From Abyssalbus ytuae (GTDB lineage Bacteria; Bacteroidota; Bacteroidia; Flavobacteriales; Flavobacteriaceae), in assembly GCF_022807975.1 (NCBI RefSeq), contig NZ_CP094358.1:2480001-2544000 (forward strand): a stretch of 64,000 bases of DNA. The letters run 5' to 3'. Both the position numbers and the translations under genes were made by a program. This document shows, piece after piece, positions 27,622-35,899 of the stretch (position 1 is the stretch's first letter; the number at the start of each line of letters is the position of its first letter). The notes under the pieces are model-generated. The model was not told the origin of the DNA, made no database searches, and saw only the letters and a list, made by a program, of their open reading frames with translations.

Positions 27622-30600
27622 TCAATTCAACTTATAAAAAACCTCCCTGTTTTTTAATTCGTTAAGTAGTTCATTAGTAATTTGCACTTTTTGTTTTCTG
27701 CTGGGCATAGTAAGTTTTACTTTATTTTCGGTTTCATGAATGGTAAAACTTATAGGATGGCTACCTTTATGTGATCTGATTAATTCTTTTAAGGAATCAA
27801 TTCTTTCTTCTTTCAGCTCACTTATTTTCAGGTGGATGGTTAGTTTTTTTGCAAAAGTCTCCATTACATCCTGAAGCATCATGATATTATTAAATTGCAA
27901 CCGGGGGTCTCCTTTCTTTCCCGTTTCTTTATTTACCCACCCTTCTTTTATATATGCTTTTACATAAATAAAGGAATTGGAAATTAAGAAATGCCTGAAT
28001 CTTAAATATTCTTCTCCAAAAATTCTGAATTCAAATGATTCATTATAATCTTCAACCGAAAAAGCTGCCCACCCTCTTCCGTTTTTAGAAACTTTATGCT
28101 GAACATCGGTTACTACACCACCAAAGGAAATCTCGCGGTTAACATAGTTTTCCAAATCATTGAATAAAGAAATATTTCCGTTGCAAAATACTTGCAATTC
28201 GGTTTTAAAATCATCGAGCGGGTGCCCGGAAATATAAATTCCAACCACTTCTTTTTCCCTTTTAAGTTTTTCCATGGTGCCCCATTCTTCACAAGGAGGT
28301 ACGACGGGTTCCGGAATTTGTACTTCACTGGCATCGCCAAAGAGGCTTACCTGGGAGGAGTTTTCATTTTCCTGGTACTTTGCTCCGTATTTGATGGCTT
28401 TTTCAAGAAAAGTAATGCCGTCACCTTCCTCGTGAAAATACTGTGCCCTGTGGGTATTTGTAAAAGAATCAAACCCACCGGCTAATGCCAGGTTTTCAAA
28501 AGCTTTTTTATTGGCTGCTCTTAAATCTATTCTTTTGGCAAGGTCAAAAACGGATTTATACCGGTCTTTTTCTCTGTTCTCTACAATGGTATTTACTGCA
28601 CCTTTTCCCACACCTTTAATGGCTCCCATACCAAAGCGGATTGCATTATCTTTATTTACGGCAAATTTGTAAAAAGATTCATTTACGTCAGGGCCCAACA
28701 CAGTTAACCCTGTCCTTTTACATTCTTCCAGGAAAAAGGAAACCTGTTTAATATCGTTCATGTTGTTAGACAATACGGCCGCCATATATTCGGCAGGATA
28801 GTTAGCTTTTAAATAAGCAGTCTGGTACCCTATCCATGCGTAACAGGTAGAATGCGATTTATTAAAGGCATAACTGGCAAAGGCTTCCCAGTCTTTCCAT
28901 ATTTTTTCCAAAACATCTCTTGGGTGGCCGTTTTTTTCACCACCGTCCAGAAACTTGGGTTTTAATTGCTCCAGGAGGGCAAATATTTTTTTACCCATGG
29001 CTTTACGGAGAACATCGGCTTCACCTTTTGTAAATCCGGCAAGTTTTTGTGAAAGTAACATCACCTGCTCCTGGTAAACGGTAATACCATACGTTTCTTT
29101 AAGATATTCTTCCATGGCCGGAAGGTCATAGGTGATTTCTTCGTCGCCGTGTTTTCTTCTGATAAAACTCGGGATATACTCCAACGGCCCGGGTCGGTAG
29201 AGAGCATTCATGGCTATCAGGTCGGCAAAAACAGTAGGTTTAAGGTCTTTCATGTGTTTTTGCATCCCGGCGGATTCGTATTGGAATATCCCTACCGTTT
29301 CACCTCTTTGAAAAAGTTCATATGTTTTTTGATCATCCAGTGGAAAATCGTCCGGATTCAGTTCAATATTATGCCTGTATTTTATGAGTTTTACGGTGTC
29401 TTTTATTAGAGTTAATGTTTTTAACCCTAAAAAGTCCATTTTAAGTAAGCCAGCACTTTCAACTACTGAGTTGTCAAACTGGGTAACATATAAATCAGAG
29501 TCTTTTGCGGTAGCGACAGGCACAAAGTTGGTAATATCATCGGGGGTAATAATTACCCCGCAGGCATGTATTCCCGTATTTCGTAATGAGCCTTCCAGCA
29601 CCCTTGCCTGGTTTACGGTTTGAGCTTCGAGGTCATTTCCTTCGGCTATATTTTTAAGTTCATTTACTTTGAGTACTTCTTCTGACCGTAAGCTTTCTTT
29701 TAATTTGTTATCCTCCAGATTAAATATTTTAGCCAGCTTCATATTAGGTATGAGCTTTGCTATTCTGTCGGCATCACTTAAAGGTAGATCCAGCACCCTG
29801 GCTGTATCTCTGATAGAAGATTTTGCTGCCATGGTACCGTAAGTAATTATTTGTGCTACCTGGTTGGCCCCGTATTTTTTTATAACATAGTCCATAACCA
29901 GGCCCCTGCCTTCATCATCAAAATCAATATCAATATCGGGCAGTGATACCCTGTCCGGATTTAAAAAGCGCTCAAAAAGGAGATCGTATTGAATGGGATC
30001 TAAATTTGTTATTCCAAGGCAGTATGCTACGGCCGACCCTGCTGCTGATCCCCGGCCCGGACCTACCGATACTCCCATATCTCTGGCAGCAGCAATAAAG
30101 TCCTGAACAATGAGAAAATATCCCGGATAACCGGTGTTTTCAATAACCTGTAGTTCAAAATCTAACCGTTCTCTTATTTCATCGGTAATTTCCGGATAAC
30201 GTTTTTCGGCCCCTTTATATGTGAGATGCCTTAAATATTTATTCTCGCCTCTTTTTCCGCCATCAATTTCATCTTCTTTTACCTGGAATTCTTCCGGAAT
30301 ATCAAATTTTGGAAGCAGAACTTCCCTGGCTAATTCAAAAGGTTCAATTTTATCAATTACTTCCTGGATGTTTATGATAGCTTCAGGAATGTCTTTAAAT
30401 AGTTCTTTCATCTGCTCAGAACTCTTAAAATAGTATTCCTGATTAGGTAAGCCATACCTATACCCTCTGCCCCGCCCGATGGGAGTATCTTTTTTTTCTC
30501 CATCTTTTACACAAAGCAGGATATCATGTGCATTGGCACTTTTCTTATCAATGTAATAGGTGTTGTTAGTGGCTATTAATTTTATATTGTGTTTTTTTGA

Positions 30601-31998
30601 GAATTGAATTAAGACATCATTTACCCGATTTTCATCTTCTTGGTCATGACGCATTAATTCGATATAAAGGTCATCTCCAAATTGATCTTTCCACCAGATC
30701 AATGCTTCTTCAGCCTGTGATTCCCCTACATTTAAAATTTTACCGGGAACTTCACCATATAAATTTCCGGTTAGAACTATGATGTCTTCTTTATACTGAG
30801 AGACTATGTTTTTGTCTATCCTGGGGACATAATAAAACCCTTCTGTGTAGGCTATGGACGACATTTTGGCAAGGTGATGATATCCTTTTTTATTTTTTGC
30901 CAGCATGACTATCTGGTAACCATTATCCTTGCGGGATTTATCTGTATGGTTTTCGCAAATATTAAAGGTACACCCCAATACAGGTTTTATTATTACCTCT
31001 TGAGGAGTTTCTCCCTTACTTATTGCTTCTTCGTTTTTTGTTTTGACAGTTTTATTGTGGTTGCCTATTTCTTTAACAAAATGAAAAGCTCCCATCATGT
31101 TTCCAATATCGGTCAGGGCGAGGGCAGGCATTTTTTCTTTAGCAGCTGCTTTAACAAGGTCAGGGACACTTGAAGTGGCTTGTAATACCGAAAATTGAGA
31201 ATGATTATGAAGGTGTGCAAAGTGAACTTCTTTAAGGTCCTGGATGTTTTGATGGAGTTCTTCTTTGGAAATTTCTTCAGAAGGGTCTTCTTTCTGGAGT
31301 CTTATTCTGTCCGATTCGGCTTTTAGGTTAATGTGTTTTAATCCTATAAGCTCAATAGGCTGAGGGTTTGTTTGTGAGAACCTGTCAAAATAATCGGGGG
31401 TAACATCCAGTTCTTCTGCAGTAAATATTTTTCTTCTTATGAGTTCAAAGAAACACCGGGTAGTAGCTTCAACATCGGCAGTGGCATTATGTGCTTCTTC
31501 AAAACCATTGCCAAAAAGGAAGCCGTGGAGTTCGGTAAGGGTAGGGAGTTTAAATTTTCCACCTCTTCCTCCGGGTATCTGACATAATTGTGCGGTAGTT
31601 TCGGTACAGGTATCCAAAACAGGTAACCGGGCCAGGTTATTTTCTATACCTTCCCTGTAAAATTCTGCCCCCATAATATTTACATCAAAACCTACATTCT
31701 GGCCTACTATGAATTTTGATTGTGAAAGGGCCACATTAAATTTTTCGAGTACTTCCCGTAAACCTATTCCTTGTTCCTGGGCTAATTCGGTAGAAATTCC
31801 ATGGACTTTTTCAGAGTCGAAAGGAATATTAAAGCCTTCGGGTTTAATAAGATAATCCTGATGTTCTATAAGGTTTCCTGTTTCGTCATGAATCTGCCAT
31901 GCAATCTGAACCGCCCGTGGCCAGTTATCAGTATCACTTACAGGGGCATCCCAGCGTTTTGGCAATCCGGTAGTTTCAGTGTCAAAAATCAGGTACAT
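27622..31998 (-). CDS. dnaE: DNA polymerase III alpha subunit with fused N-terminal 3'-5' exonuclease
   Basis: This is the replicative polymerase, 1458 residues. Residues 1-195 form a DEDDh exonuclease: DTETTG with Asp6 and Glu8, VGQNVGFDVNIM, and HNATADVEATTRCF. The PHP domain starts near 260 (FAHLHNHSQFSVLQATSS). The C-family polymerase core follows, with VGPGRGSAAGSAVAYCLGI and the metal-binding PDIDIDF near 687-693. After it come the tandem helix-hairpin-helix region and an OB fold (ISFGGVVTDVQHKVSKNGRGWAAFSVED). E. coli DnaE lacks the exonuclease, which is there a separate subunit (DnaQ). In Bacteroidota this fusion is usual, so proofreading is carried in cis. The gene is single. Confidence 0.96.
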   Translation of the reverse strand: MYLIFDTETTGLPKRWDAPVSDTDNWPRAVQIAWQIHDETGNLIEHQDYLIKPEGFNIPFDSEKVHGISTELAQEQGIGLREVLEKFNVALSQSKFIVGQNVGFDVNIMGAEFYREGIENNLARLPVLDTCTETTAQLCQIPGGRGGKFKLPTLTELHGFLFGNGFEEAHNATADVEATTRCFFELIRRKIFTAEELDVTPDYFDRFSQTNPQPIELIGLKHINLKAESDRIRLQKEDPSEEISKEELHQNIQDLKEVHFAHLHNHSQFSVLQATSSVPDLVKAAAKEKMPALALTDIGNMMGAFHFVKEIGNHNKTVKTKNEEAISKGETPQEVIIKPVLGCTFNICENHTDKSRKDNGYQIVMLAKNKKGYHHLAKMSSIAYTEGFYYVPRIDKNIVSQYKEDIIVLTGNLYGEVPGKILNVGESQAEEALIWWKDQFGDDLYIELMRHDQEDENRVNDVLIQFSKKHNIKLIATNNTYYIDKKSANAHDILLCVKDGEKKDTPIGRGRGYRYGLPNQEYYFKSSEQMKELFKDIPEAIINIQEVIDKIEPFELAREVLLPKFDIPEEFQVKEDEIDGGKRGENKYLRHLTYKGAEKRYPEITDEIRERLDFELQVIENTGYPGYFLIVQDFIAAARDMGVSVGPGRGSAAGSAVAYCLGITNLDPIQYDLLFERFLNPDRVSLPDIDIDFDDEGRGLVMDYVIKKYGANQVAQIITYGTMAAKSSIRDTARVLDLPLSDADRIAKLIPNMKLAKIFNLEDNKLKESLRSEEVLKVNELKNIAEGNDLEAQTVNQARVLEGSLRNTGIHACGVIITPDDITNFVPVATAKDSDLYVTQFDNSVVESAGLLKMDFLGLKTLTLIKDTVKLIKYRHNIELNPDDFPLDDQKTYELFQRGETVGIFQYESAGMQKHMKDLKPTVFADLIAMNALYRPGPLEYIPSFIRRKHGDEEITYDLPAMEEYLKETYGITVYQEQVMLLSQKLAGFTKGEADVLRKAMGKKIFALLEQLKPKFLDGGEKNGHPRDVLEKIWKDWEAFASYAFNKSHSTCYAWIGYQTAYLKANYPAEYMAAVLSNNMNDIKQVSFFLEECKRTGLTVLGPDVNESFYKFAVNKDNAIRFGMGAIKGVGKGAVNTIVENREKDRYKSVFDLAKRIDLRAANKKAFENLALAGGFDSFTNTHRAQYFHEEGDGITFLEKAIKYGAKYQENENSSQVSLFGDASEVQIPEPVVPPCEEWGTMEKLKREKEVVGIYISGHPLDDFKTELQVFCNGNISLFNDLENYVNREISFGGVVTDVQHKVSKNGRGWAAFSVEDYNESFEFRIFGEEYLRFRHFLISNSFIYVKAYIKEGWVNKETGKKGDPRLQFNNIMMLQDVMETFAKKLTIHLKISELKEERIDSLKELIRSHKGSHPISFTIHETENKVKLTMPSRKQKVQITNELLNELKNREVFYKLN

Positions 31999-32208: not shown

Positions 32209-32640
32209 ATGTCAATTTCAGATTTATATTCAAGCGGGTTTAGAGAGCGTAATAGAGATCATTTTGCATCGATAGTAAGAGTTGCAATGTCTGACGGGAC
32301 TATTAATGAAATGGAAAAAGAATTTTTAGACCGATTAGCTAAAAACCTTGATATTTCAGAAGAAGAATATGAAAAAATAGTAGAAAATCCGTCTGCTTAT
32401 CCTATTAATCCGCCTGTATTGTACGAGTCCCGTTTAGAGAGGTTATACGATATATGTAAAATGGTCTATTCTGATCATATTGCCGATAATGACGAAATGA
32501 ATTTGATGATGAAATTAGGGGTAGGATTAGGGTTTACGCCGGGTAATGTTGAATTTATTGTGAAAAAGGCAATGTATTTACTTAATCTGGGAGTTGATAT
32601 AGAGACTTTTAAGGAGGAAATTAAGCATATGAACCGATAA
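32209..32640 (+). CDS. TerB family protein
   Basis: The 143-residue acidic helical protein has the TerB/DjlA-N layout: FASIVRVAMSDGTINEMEKEFLDRLAKNLDIS and a second copy of the pattern, ICKMVYSDHIADNDEMNLMMKLGVGLGF. TerB-like domains bind metal through acidic residues and occur in tellurite-resistance and membrane-stress systems; single-domain copies like this are common in flavobacteria, with no known role. It is cytoplasmic and stands alone. A TATCTTTG box (32178-32185) suits a Bacteroidota -7 element 24 nt before the ATG. It converges on the histidine-kinase operon and shares a terminator with it. Confidence 0.85.
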   Translation: MSISDLYSSGFRERNRDHFASIVRVAMSDGTINEMEKEFLDRLAKNLDISEEEYEKIVENPSAYPINPPVLYESRLERLYDICKMVYSDHIADNDEMNLMMKLGVGLGFTPGNVEFIVKKAMYLLNLGVDIETFKEEIKHMNR

Positions 32641-32671
32641 AAAAAAAGCCGCTTTTACGCGGCTTTTTTTT
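32641..32671. terminator. bidirectional terminator between terB-like gene and kinase operon
   Basis: A7 tract, stem GCCGC/GCGGC with a 6-nt loop, then T7. It is symmetric, so it serves both converging transcripts. Confidence 0.9.
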
Positions 32672-34214
32672 ATTTTAAACGGCTGGCAATCTTTTTTAAC
32701 AAAGTATATTCGTCAAAAGGTTTTTGAATAATATCATTCATACCGGCCTTTTTGTATTTTTTTATTTCTTCCGGAAAAGCACTTCCTGTTAATCCGATAA
32801 CGGGTATTTTTTTCACTTCTTTAAATGGCAGGTCTCTAATCATTTGAGTTAAAATATGCCCCTCAATATCGGGTAATTTAATGTCCATTAAAATAAGATC
32901 GTATTCGTTTGTCATCAAATCTTCAATTACTCCTTCTGCACTATTGTGAATGTCTAAAAAGAATTTTTTGGTTGATGATAATATCTTAAGGATCAGCATT
33001 TGGTTTACCTGGTCGTTATCAACAAGTAATACGGAATACTTTTTTTTCTTCTCGGGAAAAATGATCTCTTTTTTAATTTTTGATTTGCTTCTTTCCTTTT
33101 CTTCTTCTTCTTTGAGTTGAGAGTGGAGGGGGAATTTTAGCATCAAATCAAAGTAAAACCTGCTTCCTTCACCTTCTTTGCTTTCAACCTGAATGTTGCC
33201 ATCCATAAGTTCCAAAAGGCGTTTTACTATGGTTAGCCCCAGGCCGGTGCCTTTATATCGTTCATTTTCGTGTATTTGAATAAACCTGTTAAAAATTTCA
33301 TCTGTTTTATCTTCAGGTATTCCAATTCCGGTATCAGCTATTTCAAACCTTACCATTACTTTATTGGCCCGCTTGGTGAGCATGCTCACATTTAATTTTA
33401 TTTTTCCTTTTTTTGTGAATTTTATAGCATTTTCCAACAGGTTAACCAATACCTGGTTAATTCTTAAAGCATCTCCTTCAACCTTTTCGGGTATTTTCTC
33501 ATCAAACTCTACGTTAAAACTGAGTCCTTTTTCTTTGGCTTTTATATTATAGGTAAGTGTTAGTAAATTGATGGTGTCCCTCAAATCAAAAATTTGCTGG
33601 TGAATTTTAAGGTTACCCGATTCAATTTTGTTGATGCTTAATATATCTTCGAGCAATAATTTGAGGTGGTTATTGGAGTTGTTAATGAGTTTGAGGTATT
33701 CCTGTTGGTTGGAGTCCAGTTGTGTTTTTTGCAGCAGGTGGGTAAATGATAAAATGGAAGTTAACGGATTTCTGATTTCGTGGCTGAAATTAGCAATGAA
33801 TTCATCTTTAAACTTTTCCCTTTCCTGCAATTGAATATTTTTTAAAGTAACCAGTTCTTCATTTATAATGGATTCGTTTTTGGTTTGGGCGAGAGACTGG
33901 TAGGTAAAATAATGCTCGGAAAGATCATTAAGAATGATGAGACTTTTATTGCCGTTAACCCGTGCATGAACATTTATGTCATATATTTTATCGGAACCCA
34001 AAAAATCCAGATGAACACAGGTAAATGTATACTCTTTTTCAGGAGATAAAAAAAGTGATTCTAAGGAAAAGAAAAAAGGGTGTAAATCAAAAATACTACT
34101 TCCCTCTTTTAAAGTTATAAGATTGTTGTCACTTTCTGCAATTATTCCGTTTTTATCAACTAAAATTAATTGAATATTACATGCTACATATTTGTTTCGG
34201 AGATTCTTTAACAT
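32670..34214 (-). CDS. cytoplasmic hybrid histidine kinase (PAS-like, HisKA, HATPase, REC)
   Basis: The 514-residue protein has an N-terminal PAS-like sensor (about 10-105), a coiled linker, HisKA with His145 in NFSHEIRNPLTSIL, the HATPase domain (INQVLVNLLENAIKFTKKG; IADTGIGIPEDK; GTGLGLTIVKRLL) and a C-terminal receiver with Asp444 in LILMDIKLPD and the KPF switch. There is no membrane helix, so it acts in the cytoplasm. Its start codon shares one base with the GTPase stop (TAATG), indicating translational coupling. It is the last gene of a four-gene operon. No separate response regulator or output domain is nearby, so the phosphorelay target is unknown. Confidence 0.93.
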   Translation of the reverse strand: MLKNLRNKYVACNIQLILVDKNGIIAESDNNLITLKEGSSIFDLHPFFFSLESLFLSPEKEYTFTCVHLDFLGSDKIYDINVHARVNGNKSLIILNDLSEHYFTYQSLAQTKNESIINEELVTLKNIQLQEREKFKDEFIANFSHEIRNPLTSILSFTHLLQKTQLDSNQQEYLKLINNSNNHLKLLLEDILSINKIESGNLKIHQQIFDLRDTINLLTLTYNIKAKEKGLSFNVEFDEKIPEKVEGDALRINQVLVNLLENAIKFTKKGKIKLNVSMLTKRANKVMVRFEIADTGIGIPEDKTDEIFNRFIQIHENERYKGTGLGLTIVKRLLELMDGNIQVESKEGEGSRFYFDLMLKFPLHSQLKEEEEKERSKSKIKKEIIFPEKKKKYSVLLVDNDQVNQMLILKILSSTKKFFLDIHNSAEGVIEDLMTNEYDLILMDIKLPDIEGHILTQMIRDLPFKEVKKIPVIGLTGSAFPEEIKKYKKAGMNDIIQKPFDEYTLLKKIASRLK

Positions 34215-34708
34215 TACTTAATTAGTTGATGGGCAATAAATTCAAAAGCATGATTAACATTATCGCCCGTTTTAGCACTAGTAAGGTAGTCATAAGGTAT
34301 TTGGTTGTCCTTCAGCTTTTTCTGTAAAGTTTTCAAATCGACCAAGTCTACTTTATTTCCGATTACCTGCAATAACACATTAGGATATTTAACCTTTATA
34401 AGTTCAATATCATTATTCATATTTTGAAAAGTAGAGGGTCTTGTTACATCAAACACGTATATAAAACTGTGAGATCCAAGCAGATATGATTCTCTTATTT
34501 TTTCAAAATTATCCGATCCTTCCAAATCCCATATAATTAATGAGATGTTTTCATTGTTATTAATTTGTATTTCTTTTTTAAGAATATGTACCCCGATGGT
34601 TACTTTGTAATCTTCAGAAAATACGTTTTCTACAAATCGCCTGATTAAAGAAGATTTTCCGACACCAAAATAACCCAGTAAAACAATCTTTTTAGATATT
34701 TTCATCAT
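34214..34708 (-). CDS. Rab/Ras-like small GTPase
   Basis: A 164-residue single-domain G protein. G1 is GYFGVGKSS (residues 12-20). Switch I is EDYKVTIGV with Thr37, strikingly like the Rab phrase TIGVDF. G3 is WDLEGS (60-65), followed by DNFEKIRESYLLGSHSFIYVFDVT, also Rab-like. G4 is NKVD (118-121) and G5 is TSAK (143-146). The residue after the G3 Gly, the catalytic Gln in Ras and Rab, is Ser65, so intrinsic hydrolysis should be weak. No lipid-attachment tail is present. It overlaps the upstream longin-like gene by 17 nt and is coupled to the kinase gene. By analogy with MglA/MglB the upstream gene may encode its regulator; this is inference. Confidence 0.9.
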   Translation of the reverse strand: MMKISKKIVLLGYFGVGKSSLIRRFVENVFSEDYKVTIGVHILKKEIQINNNENISLIIWDLEGSDNFEKIRESYLLGSHSFIYVFDVTRPSTFQNMNNDIELIKVKYPNVLLQVIGNKVDLVDLKTLQKKLKDNQIPYDYLTSAKTGDNVNHAFEFIAHQLIK

Positions 34709-35519
34709 TGAAATAGTGTGATAGCTCTTTTACCAGTACGTCCTCTTCTATTTTTGAGGGGTCGGGAAAGAGCTTTAAATAGTTTTGTGAAAAGTCAAAG
34801 ATAATATCTTGTAGCTTATTTTTAAATTCTGTAGTGTAATTTCCGGAAATTGCCACTGCTATGTAATAAGAAATAAAGTTTTGTATGTGAATATTGTATA
34901 ATTCATATTCTATAAGCTCTAAGCTTTGGTCTTTATTTTGAAATGCATCTTCTATAAAATGTTTAATAGCGGTTAACATTCCGGAAATCATATCCTTATC
35001 AATGGTAGCTACTTTTTCATAACTTCCAATAAGTAGGCCTGAATTTTTATCAATAATAAGTACTTGTAAAACTTCGGCTTTGTTTAATTCGCTTATAATA
35101 ATATCTTCTTCCTTAACTCCTGTAAACCATGATGTAAAGCGTCTTTTCCAGCTTTTTGCTGAAAAACTGTTTTCCACCTGTTGGTTGATTTTATCTGATA
35201 AAAGGTTTATTTCCTGCTGGATGTATTTTTTTATCATTTTACCCATAATAGGATATAAAGCTTCCACCACCTGGTCTTTGGAATTTTTTATTTCCTGTTT
35301 CAGGGTTTCTGTAATGGTAGGTCCCAGGGTTTTTGGAATATTTTCGACAAAGGAGTCTATTTTACCATCAACAATGGGATCAACTTTTTGTGAAAGAAGT
35401 TTACGTTCGTTCAGGGTTTTTTCAAGGATTTCAATTTTTTTTGAAATATTATATGCATACTCCCTTTCATCAGTAAGTAAAATTTCTTTTAATATGTTTA
35501 ATTTATCATTTTCATCCAT
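34692..35519 (-). CDS. longin/roadblock-like regulator candidate, 275 aa
   Basis: The N-terminal 100 residues are helical. They start with a LNILKEILLTDEREY motif and include LGPTITETLKQEIKNSKDQVVEALYPIMGKMIKKYIQQEI. The C-terminal part, about 135-250, alternates strands and helices (VLQVLIIDKNSGLLIGSYEKV; DKDMISGMLTAIKHFIEDAF; YYIAVAISGN), as in longin or roadblock folds. I recall the same pairing (VxALxPVMGxxIRKAI, then DxDMVSGMLTAIxxFVxDSF) ahead of OmpA domains in cyanobacterial and proteobacterial proteins; here the OmpA part is missing. Roadblock/longin proteins regulate small GTPases, and the next gene is one. The fold call is by pattern only. Confidence 0.7.
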   Translation of the reverse strand: MDENDKLNILKEILLTDEREYAYNISKKIEILEKTLNERKLLSQKVDPIVDGKIDSFVENIPKTLGPTITETLKQEIKNSKDQVVEALYPIMGKMIKKYIQQEINLLSDKINQQVENSFSAKSWKRRFTSWFTGVKEEDIIISELNKAEVLQVLIIDKNSGLLIGSYEKVATIDKDMISGMLTAIKHFIEDAFQNKDQSLELIEYELYNIHIQNFISYYIAVAISGNYTTEFKNKLQDIIFDFSQNYLKLFPDPSKIEEDVLVKELSHYFNDENI

Positions 35520-35536
35520 ATTAAAGAAAGGGTAAA

Positions 35537-35899
35537 TTAGCCTTTGGCGCTTATTTTTTCACCTAAATCCATCAAAAGTTTCCCTAATAATTTTCTGTCT
35601 ACTTTTGCTTCATCAAGATCATCAGTTCTGTCGGTTATTTTATTTTCCAATTCAGTAATCCTGATATTTAAATCGGTACTTAAATTATCTATATTTTGTG
35701 TAAGCTCGCCTCTTGCTTCTTCAATAAGATTGTTTAATTCGTTTTTCTTTTTGAGAATATCTTCTTTAATCTTATCAAACTCTGATTTGTATTCCTGTAT
35801 GTTTTCACCAAATAGTAATTCTTTAATCACTTCAATTTTTGAAGAAGCATCATGAGCCTGTCCGTTTTCAGGAGGATTTGTAATTTCTTTTTTTGACAT
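35537..35899 (-). CDS. coiled-coil protein, first gene of the GTPase-kinase operon
   Basis: The 120-residue, highly charged protein has a predicted coiled coil over residues 35-95 (EFDKIKEDILKKKNELNNLIEEARGELTQNIDNLSTDL...). Its motif IEVIKELLFGENIQEY matches LNILKEILLTDEREY at the start of the next gene product, suggesting a shared docking segment. The C-terminus VDRKLLGKLLMDLGEKISAKG looks like a short terminal helix. It has no signal or membrane segment. The next gene starts 17 nt after its stop. Function unknown; scaffold or adaptor is a guess. Confidence 0.72.
   Translation of the reverse strand: MSKKEITNPPENGQAHDASSKIEVIKELLFGENIQEYKSEFDKIKEDILKKKNELNNLIEEARGELTQNIDNLSTDLNIRITELENKITDRTDDLDEAKVDRKLLGKLLMDLGEKISAKG

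What the first reader, a model, noticed from the sequence alone, without database searches (positions are those of the whole stretch)
32670..35899. Four-gene signalling operon joining a Rab-like GTPase with a hybrid histidine kinase
Seen: tightly packed genes (17-nt gap, 17-nt overlap, TAATG overlap) encode a coiled-coil protein, a longin/roadblock-like protein, a Rab-like G protein and a soluble PAS-HisKA-HATPase-REC kinase. Known: MglA-MglB pairs show that a roadblock protein can regulate a bacterial small GTPase. Inferred: the 275-aa protein regulates the GTPase, and the GTPase state feeds the kinase or is controlled by it. I know of no described system with this gene set.
Basis: partly seen in the sequence, partly recalled or inferred. 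Interest (0 to 1): 0.85.

Follow-up and report, generated by a model that had tools for sequence, protein, structure and literature searches.

The report
Rab-like GTPase operon with histidine kinase
Four neighbouring bacterial genes encode a Rab-like molecular switch, two helper proteins and a signalling kinase; the gene set was described by computer analysis in 2014 and its working is still open, and the comparison here points to the part of the kinase that the switch probably talks to.

Summary
The four genes are real, spaced as stated, and strictly conserved in the order coiled-coil (C), 275-aa protein (U), GTPase (R), kinase (H). Of 80 named relatives, all keep C-U-R and 78 show H; the other two contigs end there. 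In 199 family genomes the four are nearly all-or-none (C 45, U 45, R 42, H N-terminal domain 43). R lacks the G3 glutamine, as that group does. Added here: U ends in a longin/roadblock fold (moderate-confidence model), and 15 of 15 relatives examined outside the family carry OmpA (one just under cut-off). H begins with a PAS-fold domain that recurs alone or in second kinases at these loci; outside the family sigma-54 activators or nucleotide cyclases can replace H, and one glutamine is the only column identical in all 12 such partners. Most likely R, controlled by U, docks on this domain and switches the output; the direction is inferred and no interaction was measured or modelled.

The parts
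35537..35899 (-). C: coiled-coil protein, 120 aa, first gene of the operon
   Evidence: ORF; 7 of 8 hydrophobic heptad positions in a 28-residue stretch; relatives in the same 45 of 199 genomes as U
34692..35519 (-). U: 275-aa protein, two long helices then a longin/roadblock-like domain (about residues 149-275); no transmembrane segment, no OmpA
34214..34708 (-). R: Rup-type (Rab-like) small GTPase, 164 aa; G1 GxxGVGKS, G3 W-D-L-E-G-S (no catalytic Gln), G4 NKVD, G5 SAK
32670..34214 (-). H: soluble hybrid histidine kinase, 514 aa: PAS-like (about 1-98), signalling helix with conserved Q110, HisKA 136-200 (H145), HATPase 247-358, REC 395-509 (D439)
33810..34214 (-). DNA for residues 1-135 of H: the proposed GTPase partner domain plus the start of the linker helix
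   Evidence: predicted at mean pLDDT 89.4, PAS fold; recurs stand-alone in 7 of 80 named loci and in a second tandem kinase in 11 of 80
32637..32680 (.). Inverted repeat with A and T runs between the convergent TerB-like gene and H; by eye a two-way terminator
   Evidence: read in the sequence; the terminator scan did not list it

Best explanation
A Group 1 Rup signalling operon, in the form without a membrane anchor. R is a Rab-like switch with poor built-in hydrolysis. U carries a longin/roadblock-type domain, the fold that handles small GTPases in MglB, TRAPP and Mon1-Ccz1, and together with the coiled-coil protein C forms the platform that sets the nucleotide state of R. R in one state (probably GTP) docks on the PAS-like N-terminal domain of the hybrid kinase H, next to Q110 at the start of the signalling helix, and so changes autophosphorylation of H145 and phosphotransfer to its REC domain. 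The docked domain may also supply the missing catalytic glutamine and so end the signal. Shown: gene set, order, co-occurrence, motifs, and that the partner domain travels with R. Predicted only: the folds. Inferred: every interaction, the direction of the signal, and the glutamine's role.
For: Order and co-occurrence. In 41 of the 42 R-bearing family genomes U and R lie next to each other (positions). U: model with b-b-a-b-b-b-a-a order in its last 130 residues; VIA Z 13.6 over 120 residues, top rows all longin folds (AP and COPI subunits, Mon1, TRAPP); MglB at Foldseek rank 14. Partner domain: PAS fold Z 10.8; stand-alone copies beside R in 7 of 80 named loci, with R-PAS-R-kinase order in five. 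Direction: R is followed by a sigma-54 activator (3), a kinase (6) in the nine outside loci with an R, by a kinase in Nostoc and by a cyclase in two rhizobia; enzymes this different share only the region ahead of the catalytic part, which suits a common receiver of the GTPase signal better than a common sensor. Glutamine: 42 of 43 rows; the only column identical in all 12 outside partners, also when they are aligned without the family. R lacks the G3 Gln in 65 of 70 rows and 9 of 9 outside rows.
Against: No binding, exchange, hydrolysis or kinase assay; no complex could be modelled. The U model is of moderate quality (mean pLDDT 66, pTM 0.44; 56-86 per block in the domain). Homology of the partner domain is weak outside the family: profile scores 7.6-13.2 bits for sigma-54 activators, Nostoc kinase and cyclases, none above 0.4 bits for the other six kinases, and hhalign found nothing for four of those. 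Against a trans-acting glutamine: five R proteins that do have a G3 Gln keep Q110 in their kinase. One stand-alone domain (L125, 127 aa) lacks the Gln in that column. G157 has R-H away from C-U, and G181 has C and a diverged U without R or H, so the pairs C-U and R-H can part.
Confidence: 0.6

Rival explanations
1. Conservon-like direction: the kinase is the sensor, its phosphorylation state sets U or R, and R-GTP is the output that controls a machine elsewhere in the cell.
For: The 2014 paper proposes the GTPase as output for conservons, which have no response regulator; conservon work treats CvnA as sensory input (passages). H has a PAS-like domain and no DNA-binding output.
Against: H carries its own REC domain. 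In other lineages the same position holds a sigma-54 activator or a nucleotide cyclase, which are outputs; the kinase is not the constant part, C, U and R are.
Confidence: 0.2
2. Polarity or envelope-scaffold module: C and U assemble at the envelope or a pole and R places the kinase there, so that the effect is on location rather than activity, as for MglA in Myxococcus.
For: Outside the family U has a hydrophobic segment (12 of 12) and an OmpA domain (14 of 15 over cut-off); C and U are largely helical.
Against: The family form of U has neither segment nor OmpA. A link to gliding could not be seen: GldJ is over cut-off in 190 of 199 family genomes, so the operon's 42-45 cannot be told apart from it.
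Confidence: 0.15
3. Co-transcribed genes without a shared pathway.
For: No interaction has been measured.
Against: Near all-or-none occurrence in 199 genomes, same order in 80 of 80 loci and in a cyanobacterium and two rhizobia.
Confidence: 0.03

Closest known systems
Group 1 Rup GTPase neighbourhoods (Wuichet and Sogaard-Andersen 2014, PMC4316618)
   Same: [quoted passage not shown] Bacteroidetes and Cyanobacteria included.
   Different: Here U lacks the transmembrane helix and OmpA domain that the paper says are often present. Not in the sections read: the longin/roadblock fold of U, stand-alone partner domains, sigma-54 activators and nucleotide cyclases as outputs.
Actinobacterial conservons CvnA-D (actinobacterial G protein systems)
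   Same: Operon of histidine kinase, roadblock-type regulator, further small protein and small GTPase.
   Different: Their GTPase is MglA-type and CvnB is a sequence-recognisable MglB homologue; here R is Rup-type, no Robl_LC7 domain is found in the four proteins and the kinase is soluble and has REC.
MglA-MglB of Myxococcus xanthus
   Same: Small GTPase with a regulator of the longin/roadblock fold group; MglB is Foldseek rank 14 for U.
   Different: R keeps the G3 Asp (70 of 70), MglA has Thr there (abstract in listing); U is not a Pfam roadblock.
Eukaryotic longin-type Rab exchange factors (Mon1-Ccz1, TRAPP)
   Same: Longin fold paired with a Rab-like GTPase; Mon1 and TRAPP chains are among the top matches of U.
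   Different: No sequence similarity to solved structures; exchange activity not tested; U has two long N-terminal helices.

Membership tests
Group 1 Rup system | Single-domain Ras-superfamily GTPase with G1-G5 motifs | tested here: met
   Ras 1.3e-34; motif columns in 70 rows
Group 1 Rup system | No Gln in the G3 motif | tested here: met
   Ser65 in the window; Gln absent in 65 of 70 rows. Five rows have Gln.
Group 1 Rup system | Neighbouring gene for a cytoplasmic coiled-coil protein | tested here: met
Group 1 Rup system | Neighbouring gene with the conserved unknown domain, often with transmembrane helix and OmpA | tested here: met
   U aligns with the OmpA-bearing protein of L148 (hhalign 99.8%, E 1.2e-29); the OmpA part itself is absent in the window. 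That this is the paper's domain is inferred from the matching description; its supplement was not read.
Group 1 Rup system | Output protein with an invariant Gln in its N-terminal region | tested here: met
   Q110: 62 of 62 kinases, 42 of 43 mixed partners. That it is the Gln of the paper's logo is inferred; figures are not held.
Group 1 Rup system | Placement in the Group 1 clade of the Rup tree | not tested
   no tree with the paper's sequences was built
Conservon (CvnA-D) | MglB-type roadblock protein (CvnB) | tested here: not met
   no Robl_LC7 match in the four proteins at E up to 1
Conservon (CvnA-D) | LPxR motif at the C-terminus of the kinase | not tested
   not searched; the C-terminus is a REC domain
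MglA-MglB | GTPase with Thr in place of the G3 Asp | tested here: not met
   Asp61 in 70 of 70 rows
Longin domain (U, residues 149-275) | Longin fold | tested here: inconclusive
   Best Z values are longins (13.6) but MglB also matches, the two folds are circular permutations (passage in PMC3521125), and the model is of moderate confidence
PAS fold (H, residues 12-98) | PAS fold | tested here: met
   Top 50 VIA rows are mostly named PAS, PYP or ARNT/HIF entries, best Z 10.8, rmsd 1.9 over 86 residues; not recognised by Pfam

The most novel reading that the evidence does not exclude
A bacterial Rab-longin pair that works like a eukaryotic exchange-factor platform, wired to a dedicated PAS-type effector domain that both receives the GTP signal and supplies the catalytic glutamine in trans; the same cassette (C, U, R) is plugged into kinases, sigma-54 activators, nucleotide cyclases and c-di-GMP enzymes by swapping what follows that domain.
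Probability: 0.3. Interest if true: 0.82.

Novelty: new member of a known kind. Interest (0 to 1): 0.52.

Why it matters
Rup GTPases are the bacterial small GTPases that the 2014 paper places closest to Rab, Ras, Rho and Ran, and that paper states that none had been characterised. This operon names the candidate regulator (U) and the candidate receiving domain (first 135 residues of H) in a compact soluble set of four proteins from culturable genera such as Kordia, Aquimarina, Lacinutrix and Maribacter, so the first biochemical test of a Rup system becomes simple. If U is a true longin regulator, pairing of longin domains with Rab-like GTPases is not confined to eukaryotes.

Tried and rejected
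TerB-like neighbour (32209-32640) as a fifth component: rejected, it is in 176 of 199 family genomes, far more than the operon. Gliding link through GldJ: uninformative. Defence system: PADLOC gave only weak matches (best 8.4e-4, coiled-coil type). Phage origin: PHROGs gave weak matches only. Sequence search of solved structures with U and with the partner domain: nothing useful. Profile comparison of the family's partner domain with four outside kinases: no similarity. Q15 as the universal Gln: rejected, 61 of 62 in family kinases but 30 of 43 in the mixed set. Promoter scan: 15 sites found, 17.1 expected by shuffling, so no information. Literature: eight searches in the open-licence library; only PMC4316618 was found to treat Rup GTPases as a topic; subscription papers are not covered. 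Papers: PMC4316618 outline, sections 16-18 and passages; PMC3521125 and PMC13343842 passages only; PMC3000849 start of abstract in a listing; others listing only.

Full report
What is there. Four minus-strand genes lie head to tail at 35899-32670, with a 17-nt gap, a 17-nt overlap and a one-base TAATG overlap. They encode a 120-aa coiled-coil protein (C), a 275-aa protein without a Pfam family (U), a 164-aa Ras-superfamily GTPase (R; Ras 1.3e-34) and a 514-aa kinase (H; HisKA, HATPase_c, Response_reg). None of the four has a hydrophobic segment of transmembrane strength (best 19-residue mean 1.14). R is the only strong Ras match in the 4.37-Mb single-contig genome (4.2e-34; the next is 7.8e-8). 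The genome shares its family label with contigs that match, by length, records of Leptobacterium flavescens and Kordia periserrulae, so I call the family Flavobacteriaceae; that is an inference.

Is it a unit. In 20 of the 45 family genomes with U, from which I took 14-kb stretches, 19 have all four families in the order C-U-R-H on one strand; the twentieth (L052, genome G181) has C and a diverged U only, and L046 has two R. In the 80 named loci kept of 389 found, C-U-R is present in 80 and H in 78; the two others end about 1.2 kb after R. These two sets overlap in genomes. Gaps are short: C-U under 50 nt in 76 of 80, U-R in 68 of 80, R-H in 78 of 78. In 199 family genomes U is in 45, C in the same 45, R in 42 and the N-terminal domain of H in 43. 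All 42 with R have the other three. The three without R are G079 (H domain and U at contig edges), G062 (C and U remnants with stop codons, TerB-like gene close by) and G181. In G157 R-H sit on another contig than C-U, so 41 of 42 keep U and R side by side. Flanking genes (TerB-like 72, acetyltransferase 73, aspartokinase 74, 607-aa protein 66 of 100 loci) show an inherited place rather than a mobile cassette.

What it is. The gene set is that of Group 1 Rup GTPases: rup, a coiled-coil protein, a protein with an unknown domain often followed by a membrane helix and OmpA, and an output module with an N-terminal invariant glutamine, the GTPase lacking the G3 glutamine (PMC4316618 sections 16-18). 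Here G3 is W-D-L-E-G-S; 65 of 70 family rows lack Gln. U matches the OmpA-bearing protein of another family of the phylum (hhalign 99.8%). A plasmid search found the same order in Nostoc (kinase with REC and Hpt) and in Mesorhizobium and Rhizobium (nucleotide cyclase), the Mesorhizobium genes being annotated OmpA family protein, Rab family GTPase and adenylate/guanylate cyclase. All 15 such U proteins match OmpA, 14 over the cut-off and L157 at 27.0 against 27.2 bits. The 80 family U proteins are 268-290 aa with no segment above 1.69. So the window holds the soluble form.

The parts. The U model has two long helices and a last domain b-b-a-b-b-b-a-a; mean pLDDT is 66 and pTM 0.44, with 56-86 per ten-residue block in that domain. 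VIA puts longin folds first (Z 13.6, rmsd 2.7 over 120 residues; AP and COPI subunits, Mon1, TRAPP); Foldseek lists MglB at rank 14 (E 1.6e-3). Longin and roadblock domains are related by circular permutation and bind GTPases in similar ways (passages of PMC3521125). The first 135 residues of H are predicted at pLDDT 89.4 and are a PAS fold (Z 10.8).

Which domain faces the GTPase. The PAS-like domain is the mobile element. Seven of the 80 named loci carry it as a small separate gene next to R (between two R genes in L079, L093, L108, L119 and, twice, L125; between U and R in L083 and L086), and 11 of 80 carry a second kinase that begins with it. In the family sample of 20 one more locus (L046) has the separate gene. 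Q110, at the start of the helix that leaves this domain, is invariant in 62 of 62 kinases and present in 42 of 43 mixed partners including sigma-54 activators, cyclases and the Nostoc kinase. It is the only column identical in all 12 partners from outside the family, both in the joint alignment and when those 12 are aligned alone. Against this, overall similarity of these regions to the family profile is weak (7.6-13.2 bits for six) or absent (six kinases), and hhalign found nothing for four kinases and 41% for a sigma-54 activator.

How it most likely works. U with C sets the nucleotide state of R; R docks on the PAS-like domain and alters the kinase. The direction rests on the outputs being exchangeable while C, U and R are constant. 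Q110 may complete the active site of R, as the 2014 authors speculated for their glutamine; five R proteins that have a G3 Gln keep Q110 all the same, so Q110 must have some other or additional use there. The kinase has its catalytic residues (H145 62 of 62) and no DNA-binding part, so a phosphorelay partner elsewhere is needed and was not sought.

Verdict. Observation confirmed; 'undescribed gene set' not supported. The window operon is a new member of a known, experimentally untested kind. The longin/roadblock fold of U, the stand-alone partner domains and the cyclase and sigma-54 outputs are not in the sections of the 2014 paper that I read; its supplement and figures were not available.

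Noticed in passing
L160 (window genome C1 near 4229992): 1486-1812 and 1866-2243: Two small genes in a row, the first a Robl_LC7 match (1.5e-7), the second similar in length; no GTPase ORF within the 1.5 kb held on either side.
   Followed up: partly
L079, L093, L108, L119, L125, L046: Operons with two GTPase genes separated by one or two stand-alone copies of the kinase's PAS-like domain, giving an R-PAS-R-kinase order.
   Followed up: partly
L052 (genome G181): C 53% identical to the window's, U only 28%, neither R nor H anywhere in the genome at the thresholds used: C and U may work without the GTPase, or this is a relic.
   Followed up: partly
Genome G062, contig C53 4379-4918: Remnants of C and U with stop codons beside the TerB-like gene and no R or H: the operon appears to be decaying there.
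   Followed up: no
L151, L154, L158: C and OmpA-bearing U without a GTPase in the 12 kb examined, all three from one genus of the phylum sample (g238).
   Followed up: no
window 27622-31998: 1458-aa DNA polymerase III alpha-type protein whose N-terminus looks like a fused exonuclease domain (by eye; no family search run).
   Followed up: no
window 32209-32640: TerB-like protein (Pfam 2.7e-9) convergent with the operon, in 176 of 199 family genomes.
   Followed up: yes
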